Origin: Viridothelium virens
Taxonomy: Eukaryota > Ascomycota > Dothideomycetes > Trypetheliales > Trypetheliaceae
Length of the DNA: 64,000 nucleotides
NCBI GenBank assembly: GCA_010094025.1
Contig: ML991777.1
Span: 124,001 to 188,000 of the forward strand
Reading direction: 5' to 3'
How positions within the stretch are numbered: position 1 is the first letter of the stretch; each line of letters opens with the position of its first letter. The notes under the pieces are model-generated. The model was not told where the DNA came from and ran no database searches. It worked only from the letters and a program-made list of their open reading frames with translations. The position numbers and the translations under genes are program-made. Positions 4,099 through 59,885 of this stretch are shown in pieces.

Positions 4099-5157
4099 GA
4101 TGTTTCTCGTGCAGATTCGTATAAAAAATCAAAGTAGGCAGGAATGATTTTGGGTAGAAGCAGAAGAGCTTCAAGAATGTAGTGGTGTAAATTGAATTAG
4201 TTCGAAGAATAGGCCAGACGTGCCAGCACGCGGATATGAACGAAAGAATGGGTGAATCTCGAGGACTGAGTAGTGAATGGGATGAGCTAGGGGAAACTGC
4301 ATGCTTTTGAGACCTACCGCTCTGCCGACAATGGACAGGCTCGACAATCGCATTGTTGCGAGGGTCAGTACAAAGGCGTCTTGTGATGGACCGGTTTAGT
4401 AACAAAAGGCTCGTGTTTGCCATTGTTCGTAAATGTCCGACGCCTATGGGAACACACGGCGAGCCTTCTTCTGATGCTGGTGCTAAACATTGTTTCAGTG
4501 AGCACTGCCATGGTTGCAGCGGTTGTGGCTGCGAAGCAAGAATAATTGGCTTGGAGAGCCTGACTGTTCAGGTCTGCAGGGACGTTTGACGGGTGCTATT
4601 GATTGATTGGTGAGGGCAATCTGAAACAGGCCCAGGCTGTAACCGCCCGTACCGGTTTCGAGGGCGCGTCGCCATCAAACTGAGGCCGGAGGCTCACGCG
4701 TCCGAAGACGATTGACATTGTGGGCCACTGTGCCGGCGTTTGGTCAAGGTCTCCTCCAGCACTCCTGCTTCGCGCAGGCTGAAGAAAATCAAAAAGGAGG
4801 CAGGTTGACGCGATATCGTGATCGTATCCGGCTGAACTGGTAGACAGCGTCACTGTGGGTCCATTGTAGCGGGGATTGTCGGCGGTTTTTCTTCCAGATG
4901 CCGCTTTGAGCTTCCTCTGGGCCGGTACCTGGCTCTTGTACGTACCTCAATTATCGATGCGTCCCACTATGAGAGAACTCACTCTAGTTTTCCGACCCCT
5001 TTTGCATGACCCTTCTGATGGGTTTGTGAACTTCGTGCGCATCCAAAAGACCAATCCTTCGGACGTGCTGTCATTCAATATGCTTGCTGCGAGCTAACCG
5101 ACTATCCAAATCATCTTCAGAGCCTTCCGCCAAGAACAGGAATCTTAGGCCTCCAAC
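4099..5157. other. Divergent promoter region, protease and 400-aa gene
   Basis: About 1.06 kb between the divergent protease and the plus-strand gene at 5158. It contains only short frames without family resemblance. I see no RNA gene. Confidence 0.5.
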
Positions 5158-22042: not shown

Positions 22043-25000
22043 ATGGCCTTCCCTTCTCAGCGTGGAGACAGTGAAGTAAATGACCGAGGCTCTACCGTTT
22101 TCTGGAAGTCTCGAAGATCTGATATCTACCCCGAGGCTACACAGATGGAGACTCAACAAGCACCACCCCAGATGCTATTCCCCGGCTACTCAGAGAGTGG
22201 GGGTCAGATAAATTGGCAGCAACTTCAGCAGCCTCAAGCGCAGAACGAGTACGGCGATTTCGTGCTCGGTCTCCAACCTCCCCATAGCTCATCCAACAGC
22301 CATCTTATGCAGTCGCCTTCGGCATTCCAAGATCGACGGAGTTCGGCCGGTCTAATCTCAGATTATGGATTCCCTGATTTAAGCAATCAAGCAAGCCCTG
22401 CTTACCTGGATGATCAACTGGACGAGAGTTTCGGACCGAGATTAGTACTCGATGATGATGGTAGCACGCCCAACCCGGATGCCACGTCCCATCCCATATC
22501 GACATCCAATTTATCTTGGAATTCTTCATTTGACGGCAAATATCGAGGAAATACACAGCTCTTAAGCCCGGAGTTGACTGGAACCTCGAGTCCTGCTTCG
22601 GGAACTGGGGAACACGCGTTTGCACCACCTATGCCCATTTCAAGTACCGAGCCGAATCTAGTTTCTGGGCCGCCAGTATTAACACCACCGATAGCTTCCT
22701 TACCGCCCTATACACATGGAATCACTCATCATTACAGCCCGGCGGCAAGCGCTAGTCCTGCGAATCAGCAAACATCTCAACTCCAAGAAGACACAGCCCA
22801 ACTGACGAGTCCATATCACGTATCAAACTATGGAGATATGACTTTATCCGAAGATCAGACTCAGTACGTTCCGTATACTGAAATCATGGGACCCCAGGTA
22901 TCCCAGGCTCAGGCCGGCCAAGTCAGTAATAGTGGGTCTCAGAACCGTACCACTCGGAAACGATCCTCTCCGAACACCACCAATGGCCAAAGTGCAGCTG
23001 CGTACACCGTTGAACGCTCTATTGATGGCTCATGGATACCCAATGAAAGTACTGGCCAGTCGGGTGTGGCACCGGAATCTCGTGGCAAAATAAGCAATGC
23101 CGTCGTCCCTACCATCCAAGAGCAAGAGCAGCAGCGATTTCTAGATGAACGTAATGCCGACGTAGAGGAATGGCTCAGTAGCAATGAGGTTGAGAAGTCT
23201 ATAGCGACTGATCGATCACAACTAGCACCTCCGGCCAAAGAAAATAAACTTCGCCGGAGGGCTAAGAGTACAGGGGATCCTTATACCTACGAGCAAGAGG
23301 ACTTCGATGATGATTCCCACATCCCAGGACCCGGAATCAAGATTCAAGAGCAAAGTGATCTCGAAGATGACGCGGACAGATCGTCCTTCAGCGCTGATAA
23401 GGATGACTCGCCTCCCGCGGACATCGACGCCTCAGTCGAGGTGCAGAGAAGCCCCTCACCCTCACCTCCTAATTACCAAGAGCAGTCTCGGCGATACAAC
23501 TCTCTACCTTGGAATGATGGTCCGAAAGACTCGACATATACTGGTGAAAGGTACCAACCTGCAACGTCAAATGCTGCAATGATGAAATTCTATCAGCGAT
23601 CAAGAGACATAGAGACTGCCTCCCGCTCTGCTACAATAGGATCTCGACGTCGTAGCGATACTGACCTCGAAAGTATAGCCTCTATCCCAATAGGCGTAGC
23701 ATCCTCAGCGAGAGGGAAATCAGCAGCAAGATCAAAAGCAGAGGCGCAAAAATCTAGTGGCCTCTTTACCAATCTCATAGCCAAACGTCCGAATAGCAGT
23801 CTTCTTAAGCGAAAGAGCACAAACTCGATGACTCCCAACCAAAACCAGCCGCGTCCTGAGAATCAGTCCCAAAACAGCGATACTAGGCTACAGGCACCGA
23901 AGCTCAATGTGAATACTCGTCGACCGCGATCACCTCGGATTGATACTAATACTGGGGGAACTCGTTCTCCTCATGAACCCTCAAGTGCTGTCTCTTCTAG
24001 CTCTCTGACTCCTTGGACGCAAGCGAAAAACATCGTACTCCACCGAAGCAGAAGCAAGAGCGACATCTCGCGATCTCCGGGCCTCACAGATCTCATGACT
24101 CAACATGGCGGTCCCCCAATGCTGAAACTCGCTTCTCCCGGTAATGAGTTGGAGCATTTGCAATCATTGTCGCTTGATCCAGAAGCCGATGACGCAGATT
24201 TCGACACAAGCATTGAGCCATCTCAGACCAATTCAGTAGCCATGAACATGGACGTCCGTTTTGAGCGAATCGTCCCAACATTTGAAGGCTTCAAGAGTCA
24301 TGTCCTCTCACTAAATCCCCGGCTCGCTCCATATCTGGCTGATCGAATTGCCACTGAGCAGGTGAGAAGATACAAGAAACTTCTTGACGCTCGAACAGAG
24401 CATGCGAAATACGTCAAGGGTCGAAAATGCTCATCTGGGGATCGCTGTTTTGACCTCGGCGGCTCTTCAAAACTGTTACCTCTACGAACCAACAATAAGA
24501 ATACTGCAACAACGACGGCAGGGTTTCAAGTCTTGACATCTCCTATATCCGAGGACGATAGAGATAATGCAAATTCTAATGATGGCTTGATCGTCCCGGC
24601 ACAATTCCCTTCCGGCATTCCTCTCCCGCCAGTTGAAAGGTTACCGGCAGAATTCGAATGTCCGCTGTGCTTCAAAGTAAAAGCATTTATCAAGCCTTCG
24701 GATTGGACCAAGCACGTTCATGAGGATGTGTCGCCATTTACATGCACGTTTGAGCTATGTACAGAGACCAAATCGTTCAAGCGTAAGGCGGACTGGGTCA
24801 GACACGAAAACGAACGACACCGTCATCTGGAGTCTTGGAACTGCAATCATCAGGACTGTACTCACTCATGCCATCGGAAAGACAATTTCGTGCAACATCT
24901 AGTGCGGGAGCATGCGCTTCCGGAGCCGAAAGTGCGCACTGGCAAGTCTGTGTCTGGGGTAGTTCCAGCCGGCCCCATACAGGTTGGGGGGCGATATTAC

Positions 25001-25717
25001 AAAGATATCTGGGAATTGATCGATTCGTGTAAGCAAGATACTACTAAGAGTGCGGAAGAGGAGGCCTGCTGCTTCTGTGGGAATATCTGCAGTAGCTGGA
25101 AGAAGCTCACAGTCCACCTTGCAAAACATCTGGAGCAGATCAGTCTCCCCGTCCTCGGCCTTCTCGAGCAGAGTCGGGCAGGTGGTGGCAGAGGTTCGGT
25201 GGCAAATCCACCGTCTACTCAGAATTTTGGCTTACCCCAGCAAATCGATTTTCGACCACCGCCAGCTGTTAGAGTGCCGTCGCAGAATTGGATGAGGCAG
25301 GGGCTGTCTCCTGCTGAAAGTGGATTTCCCCTGCACGTCGACACCAAACCCGATGTTGGTCTGGCAGTGCAAGCGCCGCTTGTGCCCTCGTCCACTTCAG
25401 CACATACCTATCCACCCGTCCAACTCCATCACCAAGTGACTGGCGGTGCCCAGGGCTTTTTTCCAAACCAACCCTCAATCTACACCGGTAATGGGTTGAA
25501 TGCTGCTATAGCCCGACAGTATTCTCCCCATCCCCTCCAGACAGGCTATTCTCACCCGTCCTCCGACGCCCAGCCAGGCGCATTCTCCATCAGCAATGCA
25601 GTCGCAGCTGGAAGCGGACAGCAGTCGTTCGTCACATCCCCATTAGATGCGAGCGACTTCGGTGAGGGCGCGCTCGGCGGGCACCACACCCATTCGTCCA
25701 CCTACCCGGGGAGCTGA
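22043..25717 (+). CDS. Large C2H2 zinc-finger protein, 1224 aa
   Basis: Single long exon. The first 850 residues are mostly disordered and rich in Ser, Pro, Gln and Asn, with a basic Ser/Arg section around residues 530-690. The segment around residues 740-790 (FERIVPTFEGFKSHVLSLNP, then a helix before RKCSSG) looks folded. The zinc units begin near residue 870: CPLCFKVKAFIKPSDWTKHVH, CTFELCTETKSFKRKADW VRH, CNHQDCTHSCHRKDNFVQH...H, then CCFCGNICSSWKKLTVHLAKH. A Pro/Ser/Gln-rich tail follows. This KRKADWVRHENERH class is common in filamentous ascomycetes and presumed regulatory. The ATG at 22043 begins the uninterrupted frame; no intron is needed. Confidence 0.85.
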   Translation: MAFPSQRGDSEVNDRGSTVFWKSRRSDIYPEATQMETQQAPPQMLFPGYSESGGQINWQQLQQPQAQNEYGDFVLGLQPPHSSSNSHLMQSPSAFQDRRSSAGLISDYGFPDLSNQASPAYLDDQLDESFGPRLVLDDDGSTPNPDATSHPISTSNLSWNSSFDGKYRGNTQLLSPELTGTSSPASGTGEHAFAPPMPISSTEPNLVSGPPVLTPPIASLPPYTHGITHHYSPAASASPANQQTSQLQEDTAQLTSPYHVSNYGDMTLSEDQTQYVPYTEIMGPQVSQAQAGQVSNSGSQNRTTRKRSSPNTTNGQSAAAYTVERSIDGSWIPNESTGQSGVAPESRGKISNAVVPTIQEQEQQRFLDERNADVEEWLSSNEVEKSIATDRSQLAPPAKENKLRRRAKSTGDPYTYEQEDFDDDSHIPGPGIKIQEQSDLEDDADRSSFSADKDDSPPADIDASVEVQRSPSPSPPNYQEQSRRYNSLPWNDGPKDSTYTGERYQPATSNAAMMKFYQRSRDIETASRSATIGSRRRSDTDLESIASIPIGVASSARGKSAARSKAEAQKSSGLFTNLIAKRPNSSLLKRKSTNSMTPNQNQPRPENQSQNSDTRLQAPKLNVNTRRPRSPRIDTNTGGTRSPHEPSSAVSSSSLTPWTQAKNIVLHRSRSKSDISRSPGLTDLMTQHGGPPMLKLASPGNELEHLQSLSLDPEADDADFDTSIEPSQTNSVAMNMDVRFERIVPTFEGFKSHVLSLNPRLAPYLADRIATEQVRRYKKLLDARTEHAKYVKGRKCSSGDRCFDLGGSSKLLPLRTNNKNTATTTAGFQVLTSPISEDDRDNANSNDGLIVPAQFPSGIPLPPVERLPAEFECPLCFKVKAFIKPSDWTKHVHEDVSPFTCTFELCTETKSFKRKADWVRHENERHRHLESWNCNHQDCTHSCHRKDNFVQHLVREHALPEPKVRTGKSVSGVVPAGPIQVGGRYYKDIWELIDSCKQDTTKSAEEEACCFCGNICSSWKKLTVHLAKHLEQISLPVLGLLEQSRAGGGRGSVANPPSTQNFGLPQQIDFRPPPAVRVPSQNWMRQGLSPAESGFPLHVDTKPDVGLAVQAPLVPSSTSAHTYPPVQLHHQVTGGAQGFFPNQPSIYTGNGLNAAIARQYSPHPLQTGYSHPSSDAQPGAFSISNAVAAGSGQQSFVTSPLDASDFGEGALGGHHTHSSTYPGS

Positions 25718-31986: not shown

Positions 31987-33069
31987 CATCGAATCACAGA
32001 GGCTGGTAAAGAAAATAAAATTTATGCCGACCAGGACTTTGGGGAAGCTAAAAGGTTAGCTGTGCCCGCTCAGAGCTTGCTCGCGTAAAGACCAAGGAAC
32101 TCTGTGCATTGCCCTGACCTGGTAGCAGTTGGCTGCATCCTTGGTTGGAGTCTTAACTCTCCCATTTGGGACAAAATTACTTCGTCAAGCACTAGGACCT
32201 GACTGGACTACGTCCTTGAAGTCTTCGAGGCCGCCTTTATGTCGGCTTTTACGATGGCGAGAACATTGGAGCTTAAATCAAGGGTCATTGCGGTATTCCA
32301 AATAACCAAACTGGTCTGACCATGTATCTCATGAGCAGCAGCAAGCATTCAGCTAGTAAGTTGAGGATAAGGTCACACATATTACCAGCGTGACCACCCT
32401 GGGAGATGCATTGACAAGGATGTGAAGCCTGAGTGCAAGTCCCCTCCTCAGCGATGAATTCGGTCAGTCCAATCAGTTTACCAAGGGTTACACATCTCGT
32501 AAATGGGCATGTCTAGCTCGACGTGCCAGGTACGTATACTTTTAGCGCGCAGCAAAATTTGACGACCGTGGGAAATTTGGTAGTACCTTGGGATACCCTG
32601 GCATAACACTCTAGACTATAGGGCAATAAGCAAGCGCTTGCGATACAGGGGTCCAGCCATGCGTGAACTTGGTGTTTAAACGGTTTGTTATGTAGTAGTT
32701 CTAACACCCCAAATTCCGTCCTGATTACATCGAAGGGTGGTCTCGCCATTCAACCGAGTCAACGCGCATCAGCTGCAATGTATACCCTACATTCGGTAGA
32801 GTGCATACAGGCTGGTCACACCGCCTCGCAGGCTCGCACTATCTTGGCACTCCCGTCTTCGTCGTCCACAGTCCACAAGCCAGCAACAATGCTCAGCTTC
32901 TTGCGCCCTCTGGAGCAGCAGTATCCTCTGTCTCAGCCAGTCAAAGCATCGCTACTTCACCCGGCAGTCAGTGACATTTACGAGGCTGGCCAACTGCCAG
33001 GACAAGTGCCATCCCCTTCTACTCGCCGAGCGACGCATCCGGAGCAGCCGATGCTAGACTTTCCGCACA
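31987..33069. other. Intergenic region before the NLR gene
   Basis: About 1.08 kb. Frames overlapping the NLR start are not family-like. No gene or repeat is supported. Confidence 0.5.
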
Positions 33070-36000
33070 ATGCCAAAACGTCGACTGAATTTGGGCGAAT
33101 ACACGGTAGGATGGATCTGCGCATTGCCGATCGAACTTGCCGCAGCTACCGAAATGCTAGATGAAGAACACAAAAGCCCTCCCCCAGACCAAAGCGATCC
33201 AAATCTATACACCCTTGGACGGATAGGTGATCACAACGTCGTCCTAGTTTGCCTCTCGGCAGGACAGATAGGCGGGAGTTCTGCGGCTGCAGTTGCCGCG
33301 CGGTTGAAGTCGAAGTTCAAGTCCTTCCAGTTCGGCTTGATGGTTGGCGTAGGAGGTGGTGTTCCAAGCGATAAAGTTGATATCAGGCTAGGAGATGTCG
33401 TCATTAGTCATCCGACTGGCGAATTTGGAGGTGTGGTACAGTATGACCTTGGCAAAGTGGAAAAAACGGGCCAGCTCATTCGCACTGGTTCCCTCAATGC
33501 GCCACCGCAGGTCCTCCTCCAGGCCGTCTCGAAGCTACGATCCAATCATGATCGTCGCAGAAGTACAGTTTCTCACCATCTCGCACGGTTCAGTCATGTC
33601 GAGACTGGTAAGTTTGACCGGGACCAGGCCGGACTTGACAGGTTATTTGAGTCCAGCTATGATCATAACCAGGGTGCAACTTGCGACGACTGTAGTATCA
33701 AGAGATTAGTGAAACGGAAGCCGAGGATGGCCAACGAGACTGTCATACATTACGGAACAATAGCATCTGGTAACAGAGTGATGAAGGATGGCACTACAAG
33801 GGACAAATTAAGCACTGATCTTAAGGACGTGCTTTGTTACGAAATGGAAGCCGCCGGACTTATGAATTTTTTTCCGTGCCTGGTCATCCGAGGAATATGC
33901 GACTACTCTGACTCGCATAAAAACAAAGGATGGCAGCCTTTCGCTGCAGCGACGGCAGCAGCATGTGCAAGAGAGATATTGTCATTGATTCCTGGGACTG
34001 GGACATTGTTAGAAGCGGGTGAGTAGTCGACGTGATCACAAATGCTGCAATAGTCTTACTGACGTGACTGGTCAGATCGTGAAGATGGCCAGATCCTGCA
34101 AAACTGGTCCTCCAAAAACCCTGAAGTCGAAAAGATGAGAATTCTGGAACACAAAGATCCATTAATCGAAGGCTCGTGCAACTGGGTCTTCGATGATCCA
34201 TCTTTCATCAGCTGGTGGAAGAATGACGGCGATGAATATAGGATTCTGTGGATACATGGCGATCCAGGCAAAGGGAAGACCATGATGATGATGGCCATAA
34301 TTGATGAATTATCTGAAAGAATCCAACAAACGTCTGACAGAAGGACGATATCATACTTCTTCTGCCAGAGCACAGTGCCGGAATTGAGTAGCACAGAAGG
34401 GATTATTCGCGGTCTCACATACTCTCTCGCCCACAGCAACCGACAGTTGATCAAAATCCTTCAAACTAAGCTGAAAAATGGGATTGACAGAGAAAATCTA
34501 CTCGTTGAACTGTGGGATACACTTTCGGCGATGATAAAGGACCCAAGTATTGACCGAGTGTACTTGCTTGTGGACGCTCTTGATGAGTGCAGACACTCTC
34601 CTCTCGAGAAAAATAAGGGTGAGGAGGACCTTCTTGAGATATTCCTTAATCTTCTTACACGAATTGACCTGAGTCCATGGCGCAAAGTGAAATGGATACT
34701 GACAAGCCGCAATGAGCCGAAAATTAGTGAATCCCTTCGGAACCTCTGTCAGGATACGAGCCTTGAGGTGAATTCAACCAATGTCTCCAAAGCAGTTGAC
34801 AGATTCATCGACATCAAGTGTGAGCAGCTAGCGTGTCGAAAAAACTACAGCTCAGAGCTTCTCCAATTCGTGAAGAAGTATCTTACCGATAACGCTGGGG
34901 GTACGTTTCTTTGGGTAGCTTTAATTTGCAAGGAACTCGGACGGCGCCACGGACTAGTGACGAGCGACATCAAAGCTCTCCTTCGAACTTTCCCAAGAGA
35001 TCTTGTCCCTCTCTACGATCGTATGCTCGAGCTTGTACGCGAAAGCCAAAATGCAGAAAGAGTCGATATCTCTCTAAGAATTCTCCGCATCATCAAAATA
35101 GCATACCGTCCACTCCATCTGGACGAACTTGCTAAGTTTGCCGAGCTCCCAGTTGATGCAGTTAATCCTACTCAGGGAAAGCAAGACACGCAAACTCTGG
35201 TCGAACAGTGCGGTTCGTTCCTCACGATTCGCGGAGAAACGATCCATTTTCTCCATCAGTCTACGCGCGACTACTTCGACAAAGGCCCCGGCTCTGGAAT
35301 CTTCTCGGGAAGAAACAGAGAATCAAAGATTCATTGGTGGATTGCAACTCGGGCGTTGAATTACATGGGCTGTTCCTTGAAAAGAAACATATGCAATCTA
35401 AAAAAGCAAGAAATCGTCCAGTCTCAGGTCAATCACGCTAACGTGACTGAGTGCATTCCGCGACATGTGCAGTATTCTGTGCCCTTCGGATTCTACCATC
35501 TCTCATTCCACGACACTCCTAGCCAAGTAGTCGTAAACTTCCTCCAGAAGCATTTTTTACATTGGGTCGAAGCCGTGTACGTGTTGGGCAAACCTGAAAT
35601 TTTTTATTCGTTTAGCTTCATGCTAGATTTTGGCTTTGGATTCGGTTACAGTAGAGAGTTCATGGAACTTTTGCTATCGATCCTGCCCGTTAGTGCTCGT
35701 TTGAAGCGTTTAAGAGGTTTGTCAAAGGTAACATCGGCCCGAAAACTTCTACATTATCGGCTGGCCATCGATCAATTTGTTTCTAATAGAGATCTACATA
35801 AAACTCCACTACAGATCTACGACTTAGCCTTCATGCATCCCGCCATTAGTGGGTTATTGGAGGGACAAGTACCTCTTGACGAAAAGCCTTCTTGGCTAAA
35901 AACGACCTCATTTCTGGAGATACCAACCTCGAAATGCTTACGACCGCTTTCTACGAAACCCTGTGGTGAATACCCGATATCAAAGTTCGTAATATCGATT

Positions 36001-36924
36001 TCGTCGGACTCCAAACAGATCGCATTGGCCATGGGGCATGATATTGTACTCGGATGTATGGAGAGACGATCGCATCATTATTTTCCAAGAAAGCCTCAAG
36101 ATTTGAAGAAGCTTGCACAGCGCCGCAGTATGGTCAGTGACGTTGCGTTTTCACCTGATAACAAGAAGCTAGCGGTCGCGTCGGGGCAGATTGAGCTCTA
36201 CGAAATCGCCAGAGGGCAATTTGTAACAATATCCAGACATGAAGAAGGAGCAGACTGCCATGCCGTCTCATTCTCACTAGATAGCCGCTTTCTGGCATCC
36301 TACTCGACTAGGGTTCAAGTCAACTCCTCCACGGGTGATGATCCTCCTAGTAAAGCCCCTAGTGTGGTCCGTGTATGGGATCTAAATGTGAACGCGATAT
36401 CCAAGGAGTTTGGGAGTAGTCTATATTCGATGGCCGATTCCGTCATAGCCTTTTCTCCTGATAGAACAATTATGGCACTAAGTGGCAAGAGCACCCGCCA
36501 AAATGTCACTATCAACACGGTTGAATTATGCAGTATAGCGACGGGCGAACGGATCCAGCAGCTTAACCTCAGTGATCACGGGGGCATCGAGAGAATTTTG
36601 TCCTTCAGGGACAGGCTTTTCGTTTTCACTGGTGAAGGGCCTATTGATATCACGGATCCAGGTTCAGTAATATTTGCACCTCGGAGCACTTCTTTACCTG
36701 GTTTATATCTTGAGCGTAACCGGCTGATTTGTGGCTCCGAACCGATTTTCATGCTTCCAACAGGTATCGGACTACTCGGGCTGCGTGAAAGAAAGCCAGC
36801 ATGCGTTCAGGATAACATCTTGGTGTTTGGTGGTGCATATGAAAATTTCAATTCGTCAAGGACTCATAGAGGGTTTGTCTTTGCTGAGATCGATCCGCTA
36901 CAAGACTCCAATTCCGGGTACTAG
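33070..36924 (+). CDS. NLR-like STAND protein: nucleoside phosphorylase-NACHT-beta-propeller
   Basis: Two exons, 33070..34018 and 34076..36924 (57-nt intron, donor GTGAGT), for 1265 aa. Residues about 10-315 form a PNP_UDP domain (YTVGWICALPIELAAA, MVGVGGGVPSD, LGDVVIS, CYEMEAAGLM, IRGICDYSDSHKNKGWQPFA). A NACHT NTPase follows, with Walker A GDPGKGKT at 378-385 and Walker B LLVDALDEC at 480-488. A helical region is next, ending about residue 720. The C-terminus is beta-propeller-like, with degenerate WD repeats (VAFSPDNKKLAVASG, VSFSLDSRFLASYS, VIAFSPDRTIMALSG). This architecture is known in fungal NLR-like receptors tied to non-self recognition, where the PNP domain acts as N-terminal effector. 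The gene appears intact, and its propeller repeats are diverged rather than nearly identical. Confidence 0.92.
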
Positions 36925-49663: not shown

Positions 49664-50200
49664 ACGATTTAAGACACCTAAACTCCTCTTTTCCACAACC
49701 AACGCGCAAATTAAGAGGTCTCTTCCGCCAAGATACATACGCAATGATGAACGGAATAGTTAACCTACCCCGCTTGCTTACTGTTTTTGTAGAATACCTG
49801 GCGATTACGTTACTTGTCGCGGTCCTAGAATGACAGAATCAAACAGGACACTGGATACTACTTCGGCGAAATGAGATCACGAAGGAAAGCTACCGCTTCT
49901 GATTGGGTCTCGATGTATTTCCCACGTCAAGTCACGCGGACCAGCGAATGAAATGATATCAGTCCGGCACAACCCCGTCCAGTACGAGCTGAGTCATCTT
50001 TGCATTGAATGTATCTTCAGATACCATATAGAGGTATCAAGCTACCGTGTATCACCATAGAATAAGTCGCTCTTCTTATGACCAATCTCATGGTCAATCC
50101 TATTCATGTATGAACTCCGAACATAATCACTCTGCATGATTCTCCCTTTTTGTAAGCAATCTTCTATCCTCCAGTCCTTGACACTTGACATACATTGGAC
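49664..50200. other. Intergenic, convergent 3' ends
   Basis: About 540 bp between the convergent TspO and 306-aa genes. No gene is seen. Confidence 0.55.
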
Positions 50201-51121
50201 TCATTCTCCTTCCTCTAGTCCTCCAGGGATTAGATACGTCTGGCCATCCACCTCGGCTCCATTTTTGAGTAACTTTACCACCTCGTCCTCATCGTCTTCC
50301 TCGTCCTCCCCGTCTTCTTCATCAGTCATTTCCCTGTCATCTTTAGCAGCGAGGTCATCTACAAGGTCCAGGCTTCCGAACTCCTCCGCCTCTGAAGTTC
50401 CGCGCTTCTCACCAAGTATTGACCACGTGATCTCATCGTCCAGAACAGCTTTGTCGATTTCTTTCTTCTTGAAGCCCCAGCTCTTCCACATGACCTTCTT
50501 GTAGCCAATAGCAAAGATGCCTCCACCCTCTAAGCTCATGCTCTTCTGGTTCTCTGTGGATCTGAGATAGCCTGCGCCGACACCAACGTCGAGTGCAGCT
50601 CCGACCCCCAAGATATCTGCACCACCGGTGGCGATCGTGCTGACAGGCACCGTCACGTCCGCGTCTGTTTGGTGGCTCTTGGTCTTCTTTGCCGACAGTG
50701 TAGGATTTTCGGCAATCTGCAGCTCCACTACTAAGTAGCTCTTATTGCCAGCTTGGATCCCGTCATTCAACCAGTTTCGAGCTTCTTCATCCTCTTGACA
50801 GAGTTTCTTAAAGATCTGCTTGGGTTGCTTGAGCTGATAGCGGTTGACTTTCATTGATTGCAAAGATACGTCAGATCCATCTTGTATGTTGTGGGAGGTT
50901 TTCAGCAATTTTGTTAATGCTAGTCGAAAAGATGTTGAATTGTTGGACGACAGGAGTGCTTGGAATGACTTCGCAGGCATAGAAAGAATCGAGTCCTCCA
51001 GCAAAGGGATCTTAGGCATGTACGCATCCATGACCGGATTCTTGACCGACTCGACAAGGCCACCCAAATTCAGTGCATTTGCGGGAAGGAACTCGTTCAA
51101 AAGCATTAGTTGGGACGCCAT
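50201..51121 (-). CDS. Unknown fungal protein, possibly gasdermin-like, next to a CHAT gene
   Basis: Single-exon frame. The ATG at 51121 gives 306 aa. The frame is open up to a GTG at 51247, so an upstream exon is possible. The N-terminus (MASQLMLLNEFLPANALNLG then GLVESVKNP) resembles a family of uncharacterised fungal proteins. The centre (VNRYQLKQPKQIFKKLC...WL...GNKSYLVVELQIAE) and a following strand pair (GAALDVGVGAGYL, SLEGGGIFAIGYKKVMW) resemble the beta-strand order of gasdermin pore-forming domains. These have a YVVTE-like strand, an insertion, then a Gly-rich strand. An acidic tail of about 70 residues (EEDGEDEEDDEDE) could act as a removable inhibitory end. It is divergent from a TPR-CHAT protease-like gene. 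The gasdermin idea is inference from pattern and context; the gene itself is well supported. Confidence 0.75.
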   Translation of the reverse strand: MASQLMLLNEFLPANALNLGGLVESVKNPVMDAYMPKIPLLEDSILSMPAKSFQALLSSNNSTSFRLALTKLLKTSHNIQDGSDVSLQSMKVNRYQLKQPKQIFKKLCQEDEEARNWLNDGIQAGNKSYLVVELQIAENPTLSAKKTKSHQTDADVTVPVSTIATGGADILGVGAALDVGVGAGYLRSTENQKSMSLEGGGIFAIGYKKVMWKSWGFKKKEIDKAVLDDEITWSILGEKRGTSEAEEFGSLDLVDDLAAKDDREMTDEEDGEDEEDDEDEVVKLLKNGAEVDGQTYLIPGGLEEGE

Positions 51122-52517
51122 AGTGTACACTGGTCTACCCTGACAGCCTTTTGTGGCTTCAAGGAATTCCCCGATACCAGTTACGTAGTGGAGAGAATGT
51201 GCAAGCAGCTCGTTGATTGACTTAGACAATGCGCGACATCGAGTCACATAAAGCTTTCAGCAAGGGTAGAGAAATTGCATCTATTAATCCTTGGCTATAG
51301 CTACGTATGGTCTAACGCTAGCCTAGTAAATTTCCCCTCCGCCCTAACATCTAGTACAGTCTTAGAATAGTGCCCCACTCATGGTGACTCGCTGGCTCGA
51401 AACTACTCCGTACTGTCATGCGAAGACTGACGTCCCATTCTTTCATGGCTCTGCGTCCGACTAGAAAATGTCCGAGTTTGACACGGACCACCACACCCTA
51501 AAACCTCTCATCTCAGCCAATCTGGTGATTTAATATTTGCTCATCTTGCTGTTCGCTCTGCGAACTTCGTGCAACCTTTTACAGCAGCTATTGTGACACC
51601 AAAAATAAATAAGACGAGGGATGTAGGAGGTATAGAAGCGTGAGGACGTTGTTATGATTTGTTGTTGGTCCGTGTGTCAGATTCCGACATTTTCTACTCT
51701 GGTCGGACGTACGGGGTAAAGAATGGCACATCTCAACGCGCGACTGTGTGTTCATTTGTGAAGGGAATGATGACACTGGATCAGTTGATGACTCTATTTT
51801 GGAAACGAAGAGGCGTCTCTTACGAAAGGGTCTTCCAGGCTTTCCGGAACTTGATGTTCAAGGCGCAACAGCCGGGTGGTTAGTCGAACGTTGCGGCCAG
51901 GCCAGCTGAGACACCAAGAAAAGACAAGAGATAGACCACGCGATGAAGGAGACGCGTCCAGCTAAAGCCGAGACCAAGACGGTTTTCCCAGGTGGGGGCC
52001 AATTTCAGGTTCGACTGCCCCCGTCAGCATTTCATTTTTCTTTCCCTGCTATCATCTCCGCTAATGTCTCATTATTTTCCTACCCATCATATTTTGATTC
52101 AGCTTTCAAGAGGGAGAAGAGCATTTAATACACATTCTCTGGAGCTTCAATGGCAAAGTCCGAAATGCTTTGATGCTCTGAAATTTTGTCGAGCTGACGG
52201 AGGTGATATAGGAAGGAAGTGAGAAACGAAACATGATTCTTGCAGAACTACGTTGTAGCTGATTCCAACTCCTACGTGAAAGATCGTGCTGAAATTTTTC
52301 ATGTGTTCGCAACTCAAGAGAACTTCTGCCAGAAACCCCACGCCTATACAAGGCCAATCTGTCAAAGTCTGTGCCCAACAATACTGTCAAATACAGATTC
52401 ATCAATCCTTTGTATTGAATTTTGCCTGCTAATATTTTACCGCGGCTCTCTCCGATTGCATTTCTCCTTTCTTGAGCTGTGTCTCGATAAGGAAGTTCTT
52501 AGTTACAGTCAGCAACA
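51122..52517. other. Shared divergent promoter region (about 1.4 kb)
   Basis: Lies between the start of the 306-aa gene and the start of the TPR-CHAT gene. It may drive both. No other gene is supported. Confidence 0.5.
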
Positions 52518-55500
52518 ATGGGTAGTGCTGAGGAAGCCCCAGGAGCTGGAGAGCTCAACCGGAGATATCATGAACTCGCAGAAAAATATCGTCGAACCTC
52601 GAACCTTGAAGTTCTTCAAAGCGCGCTAGGATCCATTCAGAAAGCAGTGGAGTTGACCGCGACAGAGTCTCTTGCGGAGAGTGCTGCTCGGGCAGCTTAT
52701 CTCAACAATCTCGGTCGATGCTATCGGATGCTTTACGAGGCAACGGGTGGTACCAGCCATCTGGACGATGCTGTTGAAGCAGGAAGATTGAGCCTTGTGG
52801 CCGCTCCATCGCCGTCGGAATTGCGGTCACTATGCTGTTCGAACCTGAGCGATGCCTTATCTGAGCGTTACTTCGCTAAGGGCGCAACCGATCGAGTTGA
52901 TTTTGAGGAAGCGCTCGAAATTGCTCGTGCCGCCGTTGCTTATTCCAGTGAAGACGGTGAATATCATGACGCCGCACAATCTACTCTGGCATCCCGTCTA
53001 GGATTGTACTTTGACTACATTGACTCTGATGAGAAATATCTCAATGAAGCTATCCAGCTTGCACAGGGCCTCGTCCACAAGACACCCAAGGCAGATGACA
53101 TGTACGCTGTGTATGTTTATAACCTTGCTGGCGATCTCAAGAACCGTTCTCATCGATATGGCCGGGTCGCAGACCTCGTTTCTGCCAAGGAGCATTTCAA
53201 AGCCGCTGCTGACGCAGTTCCACTGGGCCACACGCTTCATGCCAAGGCAGTCAGGATGGTTGCGGACTCAATCATCGATCTCGCAGACATGACAAATAGT
53301 CCTTTAGAGATTGAAGAGGCTCTCAAATCATTGATATCCGTTGAAAAGGACACGACGAATCCAAATGATCTTGCCAAGCTCAGACACACTAAAAGCAAAG
53401 TATACAACGCAAGATACAGGTGGTCCTCCAGCGTTGACGACCTCAATCGGGCTGTGGAAGCAGAACAGGCCGCCCTGAGTCTAGTTGGAAATGACAGTGC
53501 TCTTAAAGGCCATTTTCTTGATAGCCTTAGTCAAAGACTGGCCTCCCGTGCCGAGATGGAAATGTCAGAGCAGGATATGGATGCCGCGATCAATTATGGA
53601 AGGGAGAGAATGGAACTTGCGCATGGACTTTCCGCGCTGGAAGCTGGGGCATACCGCACACTCGGGAATATGCTAAGGACCAAGTTTAAACTCTTTGGTG
53701 GTTTGCAGAATCTAAGTGACTCGCTGAACGCACAGCGAAATGTGTTAACGGCGTTGCCTCCAGACCACAAGGAACGACCTACTGCTTTACACGGAGTCGC
53801 CCTTAGTCTGAGAGATCACTTCGAATACTATGGAAGCATCAGATATTTGGACGAGAGCATCGAGTTGGAGAGAGAGGCTGCAAGTAACATATCAAAGGAC
53901 GATCCCGATCGATGTATGATCCTCGATGGATTGAGTCTAAGCTTATCTAGGCGGAGCAGGCTCACTGGAAGCTCACAAGACTTAGATGAGGCTGTCACCG
54001 CATCAGAAAGTGCTGTTGAAGGGTCTCCAATTGGTCATATCGAGCGACCTACCTACTTGAACGGACTATGCAATCGCTTAAACTCCCGGTTCCAGAGGAG
54101 TAATAATACTGCGGACTTGAGCAAAGCAATACAAGCAATCTCGGAAGCTGTTTCAGTTTCTCATGAGGGCTCTTCATCTGAGATTATCTATTTAACGACC
54201 TTTTCGAATGTACTATTCTCCAGGTATCACGCAATTCGTGATCTAGGAGATCTGGATAAGGCCATTGAAATTGGCAGGAAGGTTGTTGCGAAGGTGCCCA
54301 CTTCCAATCCCTCCCGGCCCGCCTTTCTCCACAACCTCGGACTTAGACTATATTCTAAATACGAATGCTCTGCAGACAAGGCAGAGAAGCATGAGTATTT
54401 GAGAGAGGCTCACGACCTGGCGTTGCAGAGTGTTAACGCAACTCCGGAGAAACATCCTGATCTGCCCGATTATCTAATGCAGCTGGCCACAAGGCAGTTA
54501 ATGCTGGGCATGTTCATGGACGAGTCGGACGAGCCGAAGATTCTGGCTCAGCTTCAACTCTCAGCCACGACGTATGAGCGAGCCTTCTCAAAGACTTACA
54601 TGCCGCCGCTAAGCAGAATCAAGAATGGCGAGTTGTGTGGATATCTTAATATGCAATTAAAAAACTGGGATGTAGCTAGTAAGACACTATCAGAGAGTGT
54701 GCGCCTATTTAGGAAGACTAGTCCGTTGTCCCTGGATGAGAATGACCGCCAACGTCAGCTACGTGGTTTGTCGGGCATTTCATCTCTTGGTTGCGCAGCT
54801 TTAATCTCGGCGGGAAAGCCCGAGCAAGCAATAGAGATCCTTGAAGCTGGCCGAGGCATCATGGCCAACATCACAATGGGAAACCACGCTGATCTCTCAG
54901 AGGTGAAGGAGGCTGATCCGAAATTGCATTCCCGATACGTCTTTCTGCGCGATGCAATCTCCCAGCCGTTTCCGACTACGGAGACTACGACATCCCAAAG
55001 GCAGGACATTGTATCAAAGCGTACTATAGAGCTGACTGAGCTAGAAGAGATTGAAAGACAAATTCGTGATTTGCCTGGACTAAGTGGCTTCAACCAAAGC
55101 CTCTCAGCGGAGAAGATTCGAGAATTGGCAGCAGATGGACCCCTGGTATCTTTCTGTACAGTCGACCAGCGCTGTGATGCAGTCATTGTTACTCCAGGGG
55201 GAATTGAAGCATTGCCTTTGCCTAGCCTGCAAAATTTTGAGATCAAGAAGCGAATAGGCATGGTAATCGGATCATCACGACTCAGTAAATCAGCTCCCTC
55301 AAAAAGAGCGCTGGCGAACAAGAAAATGCGGAACTTACTAGCTTGGCTATGGGATAATGCTGTCCATCCCGTGCTGAAGCATCTCGAACTTTTAAAAGAC
55401 ACTGACTTCCCCCCAAGTACTCGCCTCTGGTGGGTTACAAGCGGTCCTTTGGGCCTCTTACCCCTACACGCAGCGGGGAAAGGCCATACAGCTCCTTTAG

Positions 55501-56324
55501 AGAACGTGTATGCTCACGTCATCTCCTCCTACATCTCCAGCTTCTCAGCCCTTGCATTTGCCCGGCAATGCCAAGCCAAAGTCCAAACAACTCGTCCCAC
55601 TATGGCTCTCATCACCATGCCCCAAACCGCAGGCGGTCTCGCCCCTCTCCAGACTGAAGGCGAGTCCAGCGCCATCAGGGAAGCATTCGGCTCTTCCGAA
55701 GCCTCAGCAGACCCCTCTTCCCCATCTCCTGGCCTAATCGAGCTCCGCCAACCCCCCGCCGCCACTGTCGTCGCCCAAGCCGGCAGCAACACAGCTTCGA
55801 TCCTCCACTTCGCCTGCCACGCCGAACCGTCCCTATCCGACCCTTCCAACACTTCGCTTCTCCTTGGAGCGGATCCCACAGCGCCGGACCCAGAATTGCT
55901 CCCTGTACGCACCCTGCGAAATGCACAGCTCACCTCGGGATCTCCAGCTCAGCAATCGCCGCGGCTGGCGTACCTCTCTGCGTGCTGCACCGCGCAGCAG
56001 TATGACTTGAAGCTCATTGATGAGAATATCCACTTGGCGACGGCGTTCCAGCTGCTGGGGTTCCCGAGCGTGGTGGGGACTTTGTGGGAAGCGGATGATA
56101 GGGCGGCGGTGGTGGTTGCGAGTGAGTTTTATAAGGAGCTTTTAATGGGGGTCAGGGAGGATGAGCGGACGGAAGAGGAGGAGAGAAAGGGGCAAAAGGA
56201 GACTGAGAGGGTGGCGAGGGCGTTGTATGCGGCTACGGCAGCTTGTCGAGGGCGAAAAGTAGGCAGGGGGAACGCGGCGGAGGATGTGTTGGCTTGGGCG
56301 AGTTTTGTGCATATTGGAGCTTGA
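52518..56324 (+). CDS. TPR-CHAT protein (caspase/separase-like peptidase fold), 1268 aa
   Basis: Single long exon. Residues about 55-790 are a string of TPR-like helical repeats, with units such as AYLNNLGRCYRMLYEATGG, FLHNLGLRLYSKYECSADKA and TALHGVALSLRDHFEYYG. The C-terminal region from about 870 is a CHAT domain (caspase HetF associated with TPRs). It carries the His motif ILHFACHA, with His1101, and the Cys motif LAYLSACCTA, with Cys1156, then FQLLGFPSVVGTLWEADDRA. Both catalytic positions are kept, so activity is plausible. In fungi, TPR-CHAT proteins are widespread and mostly uncharacterised; in bacteria, CHAT proteases can process neighbouring proteins, including gasdermins. An acidic/basic insert sits near residue 1220. 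The first ATG in good context was chosen. Confidence 0.92.
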   Translation: MGSAEEAPGAGELNRRYHELAEKYRRTSNLEVLQSALGSIQKAVELTATESLAESAARAAYLNNLGRCYRMLYEATGGTSHLDDAVEAGRLSLVAAPSPSELRSLCCSNLSDALSERYFAKGATDRVDFEEALEIARAAVAYSSEDGEYHDAAQSTLASRLGLYFDYIDSDEKYLNEAIQLAQGLVHKTPKADDMYAVYVYNLAGDLKNRSHRYGRVADLVSAKEHFKAAADAVPLGHTLHAKAVRMVADSIIDLADMTNSPLEIEEALKSLISVEKDTTNPNDLAKLRHTKSKVYNARYRWSSSVDDLNRAVEAEQAALSLVGNDSALKGHFLDSLSQRLASRAEMEMSEQDMDAAINYGRERMELAHGLSALEAGAYRTLGNMLRTKFKLFGGLQNLSDSLNAQRNVLTALPPDHKERPTALHGVALSLRDHFEYYGSIRYLDESIELEREAASNISKDDPDRCMILDGLSLSLSRRSRLTGSSQDLDEAVTASESAVEGSPIGHIERPTYLNGLCNRLNSRFQRSNNTADLSKAIQAISEAVSVSHEGSSSEIIYLTTFSNVLFSRYHAIRDLGDLDKAIEIGRKVVAKVPTSNPSRPAFLHNLGLRLYSKYECSADKAEKHEYLREAHDLALQSVNATPEKHPDLPDYLMQLATRQLMLGMFMDESDEPKILAQLQLSATTYERAFSKTYMPPLSRIKNGELCGYLNMQLKNWDVASKTLSESVRLFRKTSPLSLDENDRQRQLRGLSGISSLGCAALISAGKPEQAIEILEAGRGIMANITMGNHADLSEVKEADPKLHSRYVFLRDAISQPFPTTETTTSQRQDIVSKRTIELTELEEIERQIRDLPGLSGFNQSLSAEKIRELAADGPLVSFCTVDQRCDAVIVTPGGIEALPLPSLQNFEIKKRIGMVIGSSRLSKSAPSKRALANKKMRNLLAWLWDNAVHPVLKHLELLKDTDFPPSTRLWWVTSGPLGLLPLHAAGKGHTAPLENVYAHVISSYISSFSALAFARQCQAKVQTTRPTMALITMPQTAGGLAPLQTEGESSAIREAFGSSEASADPSSPSPGLIELRQPPAATVVAQAGSNTASILHFACHAEPSLSDPSNTSLLLGADPTAPDPELLPVRTLRNAQLTSGSPAQQSPRLAYLSACCTAQQYDLKLIDENIHLATAFQLLGFPSVVGTLWEADDRAAVVVASEFYKELLMGVREDERTEEEERKGQKETERVARALYAATAACRGRKVGRGNAAEDVLAWASFVHIGA

Positions 56325-56673: not shown

Positions 56674-59600
56674 TCAACTGTAGATCTGGGACAGGAAAGC
56701 AAGGAGAGACGTGGAAATGACGATTTCCAAAGATAGGAATGGGAGTCTCGAGGCCGTACTTGCTGCTGTAGAGCTGGCTGTAACCCCTGAGGTCGGACTG
56801 CTCATCTCGGTGCTCTTGACATCAACTATACTTCCTGCTGCTCCGTCTAAGGATGAGCCCTGCACTGTTGTTGCCGTTATAAGCACTTCCGTGACACTTC
56901 CGTTCACGACCAATCCCCCAGACGCTAAGGAAACGACATCCTCATCAATTGTCGCATCTGCTCCTCCCACATTTAACGTATGTCCATCAACAACGGCATC
57001 TGTAGCACCGGATGTCTCGAACACAGTAAAGACTTTACCGTCTGGCGCTGTAATCAGTGTTTCTTTTCTCTTCAGTCCCACTTCTTGAGCCGGCGTCCAC
57101 AACGCCGTCTTTGACCCATCAACAACGACTCTATTACTCCCATCGCTTAGAACATGGCCATTTATAGTGAGAGGCGGCCCACCAACCGAAAGGGTCTGAG
57201 CCCCTACGACCATGTCTCCGTCATTTTCTTCGAATACTGTCAAGGAGCCAGGAATAATAATTGCTGTGGCCTTAATCATTGTTCTGGAGTACGCGGCTTC
57301 AGGCGTGCTCAGTGGTATTGTAGAGCTCCCATCAACTACCAGGCCATTGCTTCCGAAGCTTAAAATAGGTCCGTCCACGGTCACTGGAGTTCCACCAAGC
57401 GATGCAGTTTGAGACCCAATCACAATGGCGTTGCTAGACTCCTGAAGCGCCGTCAAGATCCTGGAACCAATTGTCACTGTGGCTACAGATGCTCCGTCAG
57501 GCGCCGCATCCTTAGCTAAAGAGATAGTCGAGGCTTGCTCGTCACTACCCACGACCACGCGATCAGTGCCTATTGAAATAGGAGTACCGAACAGACGCGT
57601 CTGCTCGCCAGGATGAAGTGTAACTTTGCCGATTTCTATAGCAGCTGGATCATTCGGAACACGATACATCGTTTGTCCTCCCACGATTGCAATTGCTGGT
57701 GGATTTGGAGGTTTAGAATCGTCGGAGAAAGAGCCAGAATCCTGGCCGGAGGTTCCAGAACTCGAACCATCATCGGAGAGCATGGAAATAATCTTGTCGG
57801 CTTCATTGTCTGATCCGTCATCTCCAAGCACGTTGGCTACCGCTACATTCCCTGGATTCTGGTTTGTCTCTTGGTCTGGAGACCCCACGGGACCTCTTCC
57901 AGGGTCGTTCATTATTCCTGCAATCTTACTGCCAGCGCTCTGTCCTGAGTCTTCCTGATTGTCTCCACTATTGCTGGAAATATCTAAGGGATCTGAGTCC
58001 TGCTTAGGAGAAGTCGTGTCAGGGTCGTCTTCATCGTCAGAGCCAGGATCTGACTTTGGATCGTTGTTGACATTGGATGACACGGTCCCACCTGGAGGTT
58101 GGCGGATTGCTGGTACCGGTCGGTGTGGGTCATCCTGAGGTGGATTTGAATCGCTTCCAGAAGGGCCTCCTGATGGAATCGGATGGGGATCCTGCTGTTC
58201 AGCGTTTGGAATATTTGTCGGAGGCGCTGTAGGACGCTGTTGCGTCGTTCGTGAGGGTGTCGGAGGTAGTGGTGGTGGTTTTGCAGATGCGGAGGGGCTT
58301 GGTTCCATCGTGGACTTGTCTGCTCCGCTCGATGAAGTGTGAGTCTGCGGATTTGGGTAAGGGGACTGTGAAATAGGCAATGCAGCCGACGGCTGCTGTT
58401 GTAATGCGTGGGGCGGATCATACACACCTGCATATGCATATTGCAATACGCAGGTTGAAAGTGAAGGATCAACAGATTGAATGAAGCTTTTAGGATACGC
58501 AAGTATTGGAGCGTATCTGTCGGGAGTCATCGTCGGACATTCAGCCCATGCGTCACCAAAACAGAACCAGACATTAGAGTAGGCTGAATAGGGCATTGGT
58601 GTATTCAAGTCACCGTAGTTGAAGGGATATGGTCCGTCGTAATTAATATATGGTACAGTAAGTCCTGGGAATGGTTCATTTCCTGGCCATGGCACAGATC
58701 TCAGGCTGGATACGTCACTTGGATTGACCGGTAAAAGAGTATTTGTCTTGATGGTACTCTGATTTGAGCACCAAGAAACGACAACACCGCCGAAGGACAT
58801 ATATGCTGTTGGAGAAGTTAGTATAGTACCATCGAAGTCTTGTGTATTTGGCCCGATGCCCGTTGGCTCCGCAGTGAAAGTAGTCAACTCCGTCGTGTTT
58901 GGACAAATGTGGTTGTTTGGCACAGCGGTCGAAGGCCAATAAAGTAGTCGTACCGATTGTGCAATGATGTTACATGTTGAGCAGACCGTGAAAGAGCAGG
59001 CTGGCGGGGTGGGTTCTGTCGGGTACGTTATCTCACCCGAGACATTGCATGCGAATGCCCTAGATGAGTCGGTGACAGCTCTGTCCTGGTCTTGGGAGCT
59101 CAGGCAGCTATCGTATGCATCCAAAGCGGCACCATAGGAAGCAAGGTCAGAGGTGAATACACTTTGTAAAATTTCACAGCCTCGTGTACCTAAGGTACAG
59201 GGAGTTGTGACCGGGTAAGGGGGTGCCAGAACCTGAGGCTCCTGATATCCGCGGCCTTTGTTTGTGTATATGACGGGGCTAGGATTGATAGCTCTCGGTA
59301 TTCCATCACACAATGTTGTGATAGTATAATTGTACGTGGTGGTAACCTCAGCACTGGGCAAAAAGGTTTGAGTCGTAGAGTAGGAATTATTACTGAACCA
59401 AGCATCACTGGCAGCAGAATAACTTTGCAGAGCACTGGCACAACTGCGAGCAGACTCCGAGCTATTTGCTCCAGAAAGAGGTATTGTAAGATTCTTCGAT
59501 GATGAAAAGGGGAGAGTTGAATTCTGTGTAGCGTTGGGTGAGGTGGAGAGTGTGGATATGAATGCGGCCTTTGAGGTTACATCGATCTCCAATTCAGTCG

Positions 59601-59885
59601 ATGATGTTCCTAGGCCTTGGAGAATGTAACTGCCTACACCGAGAGAACTCGACACAGGTGATTTGGTCGAAAGACTGCCGGAACTGACTCTCGATTTAGA
59701 CGTTGAATGGATGTAGCATTGGGAGCATGAACTGTTAAAGACCCCAGTCGCGTTCAATGACTGGCTTCCATCTTTACTGATTGTGAGCAGAGCATCCAAC
59801 AACAATTGCTTCTTTACTCACACGAGAAATCATTGAATAAAGTGAGACAAGTTAATAGTACAAAGAAAGAAAAGCTGGAGGTCAT
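56674..59885 (-). CDS. GPI-anchored repeat-containing cell-wall protein, 1056 aa
   Basis: Two exons, reading leftward: 59885..59818 and 59776..56674; the phase fits. The first exon supplies a secretion signal (MTSSFSFFVLLTCLTLFND, then FSC). The 41-nt intron has donor GTAAAG and acceptor ATCAG. The N-terminal half is Ser/Thr-rich with scattered Cys (CSQC, CSFTVCSTC) and many N-glycosylation sites. A Pro-rich and then an Asp/Ser-rich disordered linker follow. Residues about 725-1010 hold diverged repeats of 60-75 residues, seen as VVGSDEQ, IVIGSQTASLGGTPVTVDG, MVVGAQTLSVGGPPLTINGH and AVVDGHTLNVGG, each followed by a VVxGS end. A Ser/Ala stretch and hydrophobic C-terminus (LEIVISTSLLAFLSQIYS) indicate GPI anchoring. 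Likely a wall adhesin or structural protein. Confidence 0.85.

What the first reader, a model, noticed from the sequence alone, without database searches (positions are those of the whole stretch)
50201..56324. Divergent pair: candidate gasdermin-like gene and TPR-CHAT protease-like gene
Seen: a 306-aa protein with a central YLVVEL strand, a Gly-rich GGGIFAIGYKKV strand and a long acidic tail sits head-to-head with a 1268-aa TPR-CHAT protein whose His1101 and Cys1156 positions are intact. Known: fungal gasdermin-like genes are often linked to protease genes, and bacterial gasdermins often neighbour CHAT proteases that remove an inhibitory C-terminal end. Inference: this may be a two-gene regulated cell-death module in which CHAT processing frees the pore domain, with TPRs as sensor or scaffold. 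A CHAT protein without NACHT as the partner would be an unusual arrangement.
Basis: partly seen in the sequence, partly recalled or inferred. Interest (0 to 1): 0.85.

Follow-up and report, generated by a model that had tools for sequence, protein, structure and literature searches.

The report
Fungal gasdermin and TPR-CHAT protease pair
This is a fungal gene pair, probably a cell-killing pore protein and the caspase-like protease that switches it on; such pairs are already known in fungi, so it is a new member of a known kind.

Summary
The large protein is a TPR-CHAT protease (Pfam CHAT E 6e-31); His1101 and Cys1156 align with the published catalytic pair of Craspase TPR-CHAT, and its N-terminal part repeats every 45 residues. 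The small protein matched no curated family and no gasdermin in a plain PDB sequence search; two single-sequence AlphaFold2 runs failed (mean pLDDT 31.9 and 30.9). A profile from three fungal gasdermins (RCD-1-1, RCD-1-2, HET-Q1) does match it, above the 408 other window frames and 6000 of 6000 shuffles. The match is weak (14.6 bits; 17-24% identity), and smaller reference sets do worse: a distant but probable gasdermin. Its 66-residue acidic tail sits where HET-Q1 carries its removable end. Best reading: CHAT cleavage frees the pore domain. Cleavage, pores and cross-species linkage were untestable.

The parts
50402..51121 (-). predicted gasdermin-like pore-forming domain, P0001 residues 1-240 (the profile match covers residues 87-204; the N-terminal 86 residues found no counterpart, the references being read only from residue 65-97 on)
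   Evidence: three-sequence fungal gasdermin profile, 14.6 bits, above the 408 other window frames and 6000 of 6000 shuffles; hhalign aligned 92-207
50201..50401 (-). acidic C-terminal tail of P0001, residues 241-306 plus stop; candidate inhibitory end
   Evidence: net charge -23 over 66 residues, 41% D/E; position compares with the 40-residue end removed from HET-Q1 at F238; inhibitory role is inference
51122..52517 (.). divergent intergenic region, 1396 bp, possible shared control region
   Evidence: coordinates of the two starts; shared control is inference, no promoter scan was made
52518..55304 (+). N-terminal part of P0002 (residues 1-929), TPR-type repeats with a 45-residue period measured over 21-760
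   Evidence: period 45 at Z 10.9, no GxxxxGK[ST]; sub-threshold TPR_12 and TPR_10 matches
55335..56324 (+). CHAT (caspase-like) protease domain of P0002, residues 940-1268, with H1101 and C1156
   Evidence: PF12770 E 6e-31; NCBIfam Csx29 model E 4.4e-06, below its cut-off; alignment to H585/C627 of Craspase TPR-CHAT

Best explanation
A two-gene regulated-cell-death module of a filamentous fungus. P0002 is a sensor-protease: a long TPR-type repeat array (inferred sensor or scaffold) joined to a CHAT cysteine protease with its His-Cys pair in place. P0001 is a fungal gasdermin held inactive by its 66-residue acidic end. When the repeats perceive a trigger, the CHAT domain cuts P0001 near the end of the pore domain (about residues 236-255), the acidic end leaves, and the freed domains assemble into membrane pores that kill the cell, probably in allorecognition or defence. 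Shown here: both genes, the CHAT domain, the catalytic positions, the repeats, a significant but weak gasdermin match, adjacency. Inferred: cleavage and its place, inhibition by the tail, pore formation, trigger, purpose.
For: CHAT domain E 6e-31. H1101 and C1156 align, read by eye from the print, with residues 585 and 627 of PDB chain 7x8a_D (positions counted), the catalytic dyad named in PMC9729208 (passages). A profile from RCD-1-1, RCD-1-2 and HET-Q1 scores P0001 at 14.6 bits, first of 611 entries (P0001, 409 window frames of which one is its own parent frame, 200 shuffles, one reversed copy); after the parent frame the next entry, the reversed copy, has 5.4. 0 of 3000 whole-length and 0 of 3000 local shuffles reach it, maxima 6.7 and 8.6. 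Smith-Waterman against RCD-1-1: Z 8.1, 0 of 1000 shuffles. hhalign puts P0001 above the other 86 frames and 150 shuffles. Shared features in the alignment: QP...C.E..E...W with RCD-1-1, followed by a YLVV...IA / YMIT...VA strand. Published prior: about 80% of fungal gasdermin genes lie near protease genes; 19% of them near CHAT genes, about 17% of the linked proteases carrying CHAT; a TPR-CHAT activates a gasdermin in a P. anserina two-gene cluster.
Against: The gasdermin match is weak: no Pfam, NCBIfam, PADLOC or plain PDB phmmer gasdermin match; identity to the three references 16.5 to 23.8%; hhalign probability only 18%. Smaller reference sets do worse: RCD-1-1 plus RCD-1-2 gives 6.3 bits with 6 of 6000 shuffles reaching it, while HET-Q1 scores 22.6 on that profile; RCD-1-2 alone and HET-Q1 alone give negative scores reached by 1787 and 2000 of 6000; the two mammalian gasdermins give 2.2 bits, 97 of 6000. 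Smith-Waterman against RCD-1-2 (Z 0.0) and HET-Q1 (Z 1.0) is not significant, and two other window frames reach 59 and 53 against 69 for P0001 on RCD-1-1. AlphaFold2 gave no usable model. No relative was found in the prokaryote and viral collections, so conservation of the linkage is untested.
Confidence: 0.84

Rival explanations
1. P0001 is a gasdermin but P0002 is not its activator: the two genes are neighbours by chance, and P0001 works without cleavage (as RCD-1 does, by meeting another allele) or is cut by another protease.
For: RCD-1 is not controlled by cleavage; the gap is 1396 bp and linkage in other species could not be tested; an S8 subtilase lies in the same window at 2656-4128.
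Against: P0001 has a C-terminal extension at about the place where HET-Q1 is cut; CHAT linkage is a known pattern; the S8 gene is 46 kb away and has a sub-threshold I9 propeptide match, which I recall as typical of secreted subtilases.
Confidence: 0.08
2. P0001 is not a gasdermin but another, uncharacterised substrate or partner of the TPR-CHAT protease with an acidic tail.
For: No curated family hit and weak scores; poor scores on several reference subsets; TPR-CHAT of Craspase cuts another substrate, Csx30 (PMC9729208, passages).
Against: Profile and shuffle tests with the three references, rank first by two methods, shared features.
Confidence: 0.07
3. P0001 is a spurious open frame and the TPR-CHAT gene stands alone.
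For: No database relative was found with the tools on hand, which hold no fungal genomes.
Against: Codon usage favours the coding frame over the other five, and all seven 40-codon blocks of codons 1-280 are positive; the profile match would be a coincidence.
Confidence: 0.01

Closest known systems
P. anserina gasdermin / TPR-CHAT two-gene cluster (Clave et al. 2022, seen only through passages of reviews)
   Same: a fungal gasdermin gene clustered with a gene for a TPR-bearing CHAT protease
   Different: there activation was shown by experiment; here only sequence. Its sequences, orientation and any further domains were not seen (paper not held)
HET-Q1 / HET-Q2 of P. anserina
   Same: gasdermin with a short C-terminal end (278 aa, last 40 removed at F238) controlled by a protease
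   Different: HET-Q2 is an S8 subtilase, not CHAT; the tail of P0001 is longer (66 residues) and strongly acidic; the letters of the HET-Q1 tail were not seen
RCD-1-1 / RCD-1-2 of N. crassa
   Same: RCD-1-1 is the best pairwise match of P0001 among the three fungal gasdermins compared
   Different: RCD-1 needs no protease and is shorter, 257 and 244 aa
Craspase TPR-CHAT (Csx29)
   Same: TPR repeats plus CHAT with the same His-Cys pair
   Different: bacterial CRISPR component, RNA-activated; Csx29 model score 25.8 far below its cut-off of 300
A. fumigatus hetB CHAT protein (PMC11138114, passages)
   Same: a CHAT protein of 1327 residues acting in heterokaryon incompatibility
   Different: its alternate allele is a 149-residue protein without known domains; a gasdermin link is only suspected by its authors

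Membership tests
[quoted passage not shown]
   14.6 bits on a three-sequence profile, above the 408 other window frames and 6000 of 6000 shuffles; weak on subsets of the references; match covers residues 87-204 only
fungal gasdermins (fGSDM) | gasdermin fold of the pore domain | tested here: inconclusive
   single-sequence AlphaFold2, mean pLDDT 31.9 and 30.9; no fold search was made with such models
fungal gasdermins (fGSDM) | short C-terminal end after the pore domain in those controlled by cleavage (RCD-1 is not) | tested here: met
   66 residues after about residue 240, net charge -23; that it inhibits was not tested
fungal gasdermins (fGSDM) | membrane binding, oligomers, pores, cell death | not testable with these tools
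   needs experiment
CHAT proteases | CHAT domain | tested here: met
   PF12770, 108.4 bits against a cut-off of 24
CHAT proteases | His-Cys catalytic pair | tested here: met
   H1101 and C1156 align with H585 and C627; the phmmer alignment itself is weak, E 0.3, and was read by eye
CHAT proteases | protease activity | not testable with these tools
   needs experiment
fGSDM-protease two-gene cluster | gasdermin and protease genes within 10 kb | tested here: met
   1396 bp apart, divergent, given that P0001 is a gasdermin
fGSDM-protease two-gene cluster | linkage conserved in related genomes | not testable with these tools
   no fungal genomes held; scans of prokaryote contigs (both proteins) and viral contigs (P0001) found nothing
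NLR-type gasdermin sensor | NACHT or NB-ARC domain with P-loop | tested here: not met
   no NACHT or NB-ARC match in P0002 up to E 1; no GxxxxGK[ST], only one loose ALISAGK at 761
type III-E CRISPR Craspase (Csx29) | score above the family cut-off | tested here: not met
   25.8 bits against 300

The most novel reading that the evidence does not exclude
A divergent branch of fungal gasdermins kept inactive by a long, mostly disordered, acidic tail that shields basic membrane-binding patches, so that one CHAT cut switches charge as well as releasing the pore domain: an electrostatic latch. Whether other gasdermins are held by acidic tails was not searched for; disorder of the tail and shielding are inference.
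Probability: 0.15. Interest if true: 0.4.

Novelty: new member of a known kind. Interest (0 to 1): 0.25.

Why it matters
It adds a distant gasdermin that the curated libraries tried here miss, next to its likely protease, and gives a ready pair for testing how TPR-CHAT sensors trigger gasdermin death in fungi. The open question it touches, what such sensors detect, is general to the class (PMC12881547 names it as open) and is not settled by this pair.

Tried and rejected
Tried without result: Pfam, NCBIfam, PADLOC and PDB phmmer with P0001 (the only Pfam match up to E 10 was NOA36, E 2.6, on the acidic tail; the three PDB matches, E 0.18 to 3.2, are not gasdermins). AlphaFold2 of P0001 whole and of residues 1-245, both too poor for a fold search, which was not run. 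Relatives of P0001 in genome contigs and viral contigs and of P0002 in genome contigs (single-sequence queries reach close relatives only; P0002 was not sought in viral contigs). The window's own genome (none held). Paralogues inside the window (none for P0001; five chance-level pieces for P0002, best E 0.58). PDB phmmer with whole P0002 gave nothing at E 0.1; with the CHAT domain alone it gave weak CHAT matches. PMC11760362 (outline and section 6) gave no sequence detail that I could use. Alignment A1 was not used further.

Considered and rejected: CHAT without NACHT as an unusual partner (contradicted); the 122-aa plus-strand frame 50136-50504 as a gene (it lies opposite the acidic tail; over the whole P0001 gene the opposite-strand frames score below the coding frame); membership of P0002 in Csx29 (score far below cut-off).

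Full report
Observation. Both genes are present as described. The small gene is one uninterrupted frame of 306 codons on the minus strand (50201-51121), the large one 1268 codons on the plus strand (52518-56324), with 1396 bp between the start codons. A scan with one splice-site pattern found no intron-like stretch in either, and codon usage trained on three window genes (P0002, the NACHT gene and the Ars2 gene) prefers the coding frame of the small gene to the other five frames, with all seven 40-codon blocks of codons 1-280 positive. That the genome is a filamentous fungus is my inference from its neighbours (NACHT protein with WD40-type matches, Ars2, TspO exon, PX/DUF3818 protein); the species was not determined, and no whole genome is held.

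Large protein. Pfam places a CHAT domain at residues 940-1268 with E 6e-31 and 108.4 bits against a cut-off of 24. The NCBIfam model of the type III-E CRISPR TPR-CHAT protein Csx29 also matches, far below its cut-off (25.8 against 300 bits). A PDB search with residues 930-1268 lists six sequences, all named CHAT, TPR-CHAT or Csx29, at E 0.078 to 0.32. In the printed alignment to the 716-residue chain 7x8a_D, read by eye, H1101 and C1156 fall on residues 585 and 627; PMC9729208 (passages) names H585 and C627 as the catalytic dyad. Residues 21-760 repeat with a period of 45 residues (Z 10.9 against shuffles; next best period Z 3.3), which with the sub-threshold TPR matches suggests a TPR-type array; no GxxxxGK[ST] was found, only a loose ALISAGK at 761. 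So it is a TPR-CHAT protein and not an NLR by these tests.

Small protein, negative results. No match in Pfam up to E 10 apart from NOA36 at E 2.6 on the acidic tail, none in NCBIfam or PADLOC up to E 10, no PDB gasdermin by phmmer up to E 10. AlphaFold2 from the single sequence gave mean pLDDT 31.9 for the whole and 30.9 for residues 1-245, so no fold search was made.

Small protein, positive results. Three fungal gasdermins could be read, in part, from PDB search prints: RCD-1-1 (78-238), RCD-1-2 (97-235) and HET-Q1 (65-223) (the bait was made up). I built a profile from these three alone; it was the first profile tried. Among 611 entries (P0001, 409 stop-to-stop window frames of at least 60 residues including its own parent frame, 200 shuffles, one reversed copy), P0001 came first (14.6 bits, E 0.0007), its parent frame second, and the next entry, the reversed copy, had 5.4 bits. 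Against 3000 whole-length and 3000 local (15-residue block) shuffles none reached 14.6; maxima were 6.7 and 8.6. The two mammalian gasdermins score 3.7 and 0.8 on the same profile, so P0001 lies nearer to these fungal gasdermins than they do. hhalign puts P0001 (18.4%, score 28.5) above the other 86 frames of at least 120 residues and 150 shuffles, best control 9.3%; its parent frame gets 16.7%. The alignment keeps the order of features: QP followed by C.E..E...W, shared with RCD-1-1 and only in part with the other two, then the YLVV...IA strand (YMIT...VA in RCD-1-1), a variable region and the final strand region. Identity is 29 of 143, 22 of 133 and 35 of 147 aligned positions for RCD-1-1, RCD-1-2 and HET-Q1.

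Results against. Other reference sets do worse (all; shuffles out of 6000 that reach the score): RCD-1-1 plus RCD-1-2, 6.3 bits, 6, while HET-Q1 has 22.6 on that profile; RCD-1-1 plus HET-Q1, 8.9 bits, 1; RCD-1-2 plus HET-Q1, 2.5 bits, 130; RCD-1-1 alone, 7.0 bits, 7; RCD-1-2 alone, -1.1 bits, 1787; HET-Q1 alone, -0.9 bits, 2000; two mammalian gasdermins, 2.2 bits, 97; all five, 11.8 bits, 0. Smith-Waterman gives Z 8.1 with RCD-1-1 but 0.0 and 1.0 with RCD-1-2 and HET-Q1, and two other window frames reach 59 and 53 against 69 on RCD-1-1. I therefore call P0001 a probable, distant fungal gasdermin.

Tail. Residues 241-306 carry net charge -23, with 55% acidic residues in 241-280. HET-Q1 (278 aa) loses its last 40 residues after F238 (PMC10989679, passages). 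The tail of P0001 starts at about the same place, so it is the natural candidate for the inhibitory end; that it inhibits, and where it is cut, is inference.

Known context. [quoted passage not shown] anserina. PMC10197012 (passages) gives about 63% S8 and 19% CHAT among gasdermin genes, and dozens of NLR or NLR-like CHAT proteins among about 1500 linked proteases. PMC10989679 (passages) gives about 17% CHAT among the linked proteases. PMC11138114 (passages) reports a CHAT protein of 1327 residues at the A. fumigatus hetB incompatibility locus. The primary paper of Clave et al. 2022 is not held and was not read.

Verdict. A probable fungal gasdermin / TPR-CHAT two-gene module, a new member of a known kind. 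Linkage in other genomes could not be surveyed: the collections on hand are prokaryotic and viral, and the three scans made gave no relatives.

Noticed in passing
33058-36924 (+): A PNP_UDP phosphorylase frame (33058-34023) followed in the same frame by a NACHT match and sub-threshold WD40-type matches (34135-36924): probably one PNP-NACHT-WD40 NLR gene split by a short intron, about 13 kb from the pair.
   Followed up: partly
2656-4128 (-): S8 subtilase with a sub-threshold I9 propeptide match; S8 proteases are the commonest partners of fungal gasdermins, but this one is 46 kb away and the fungal gasdermin profile found no second convincing frame among the 409 window frames of 60 or more residues.
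   Followed up: partly
56674-59805 (-): 1043-codon frame, by eye rich in Ser, Pro and Thr with similar segments repeated near its C-terminal part, no Pfam match at E 0.01; possibly a secreted or wall protein.
   Followed up: no
22043-25717 (+): 1224-codon single frame with no Pfam match at E 0.01.
   Followed up: no
50136-50504 (+): 122-aa frame opposite the acidic tail, rich in serine; looks like a shadow of the D/E-rich stretch, not a gene.
   Followed up: partly
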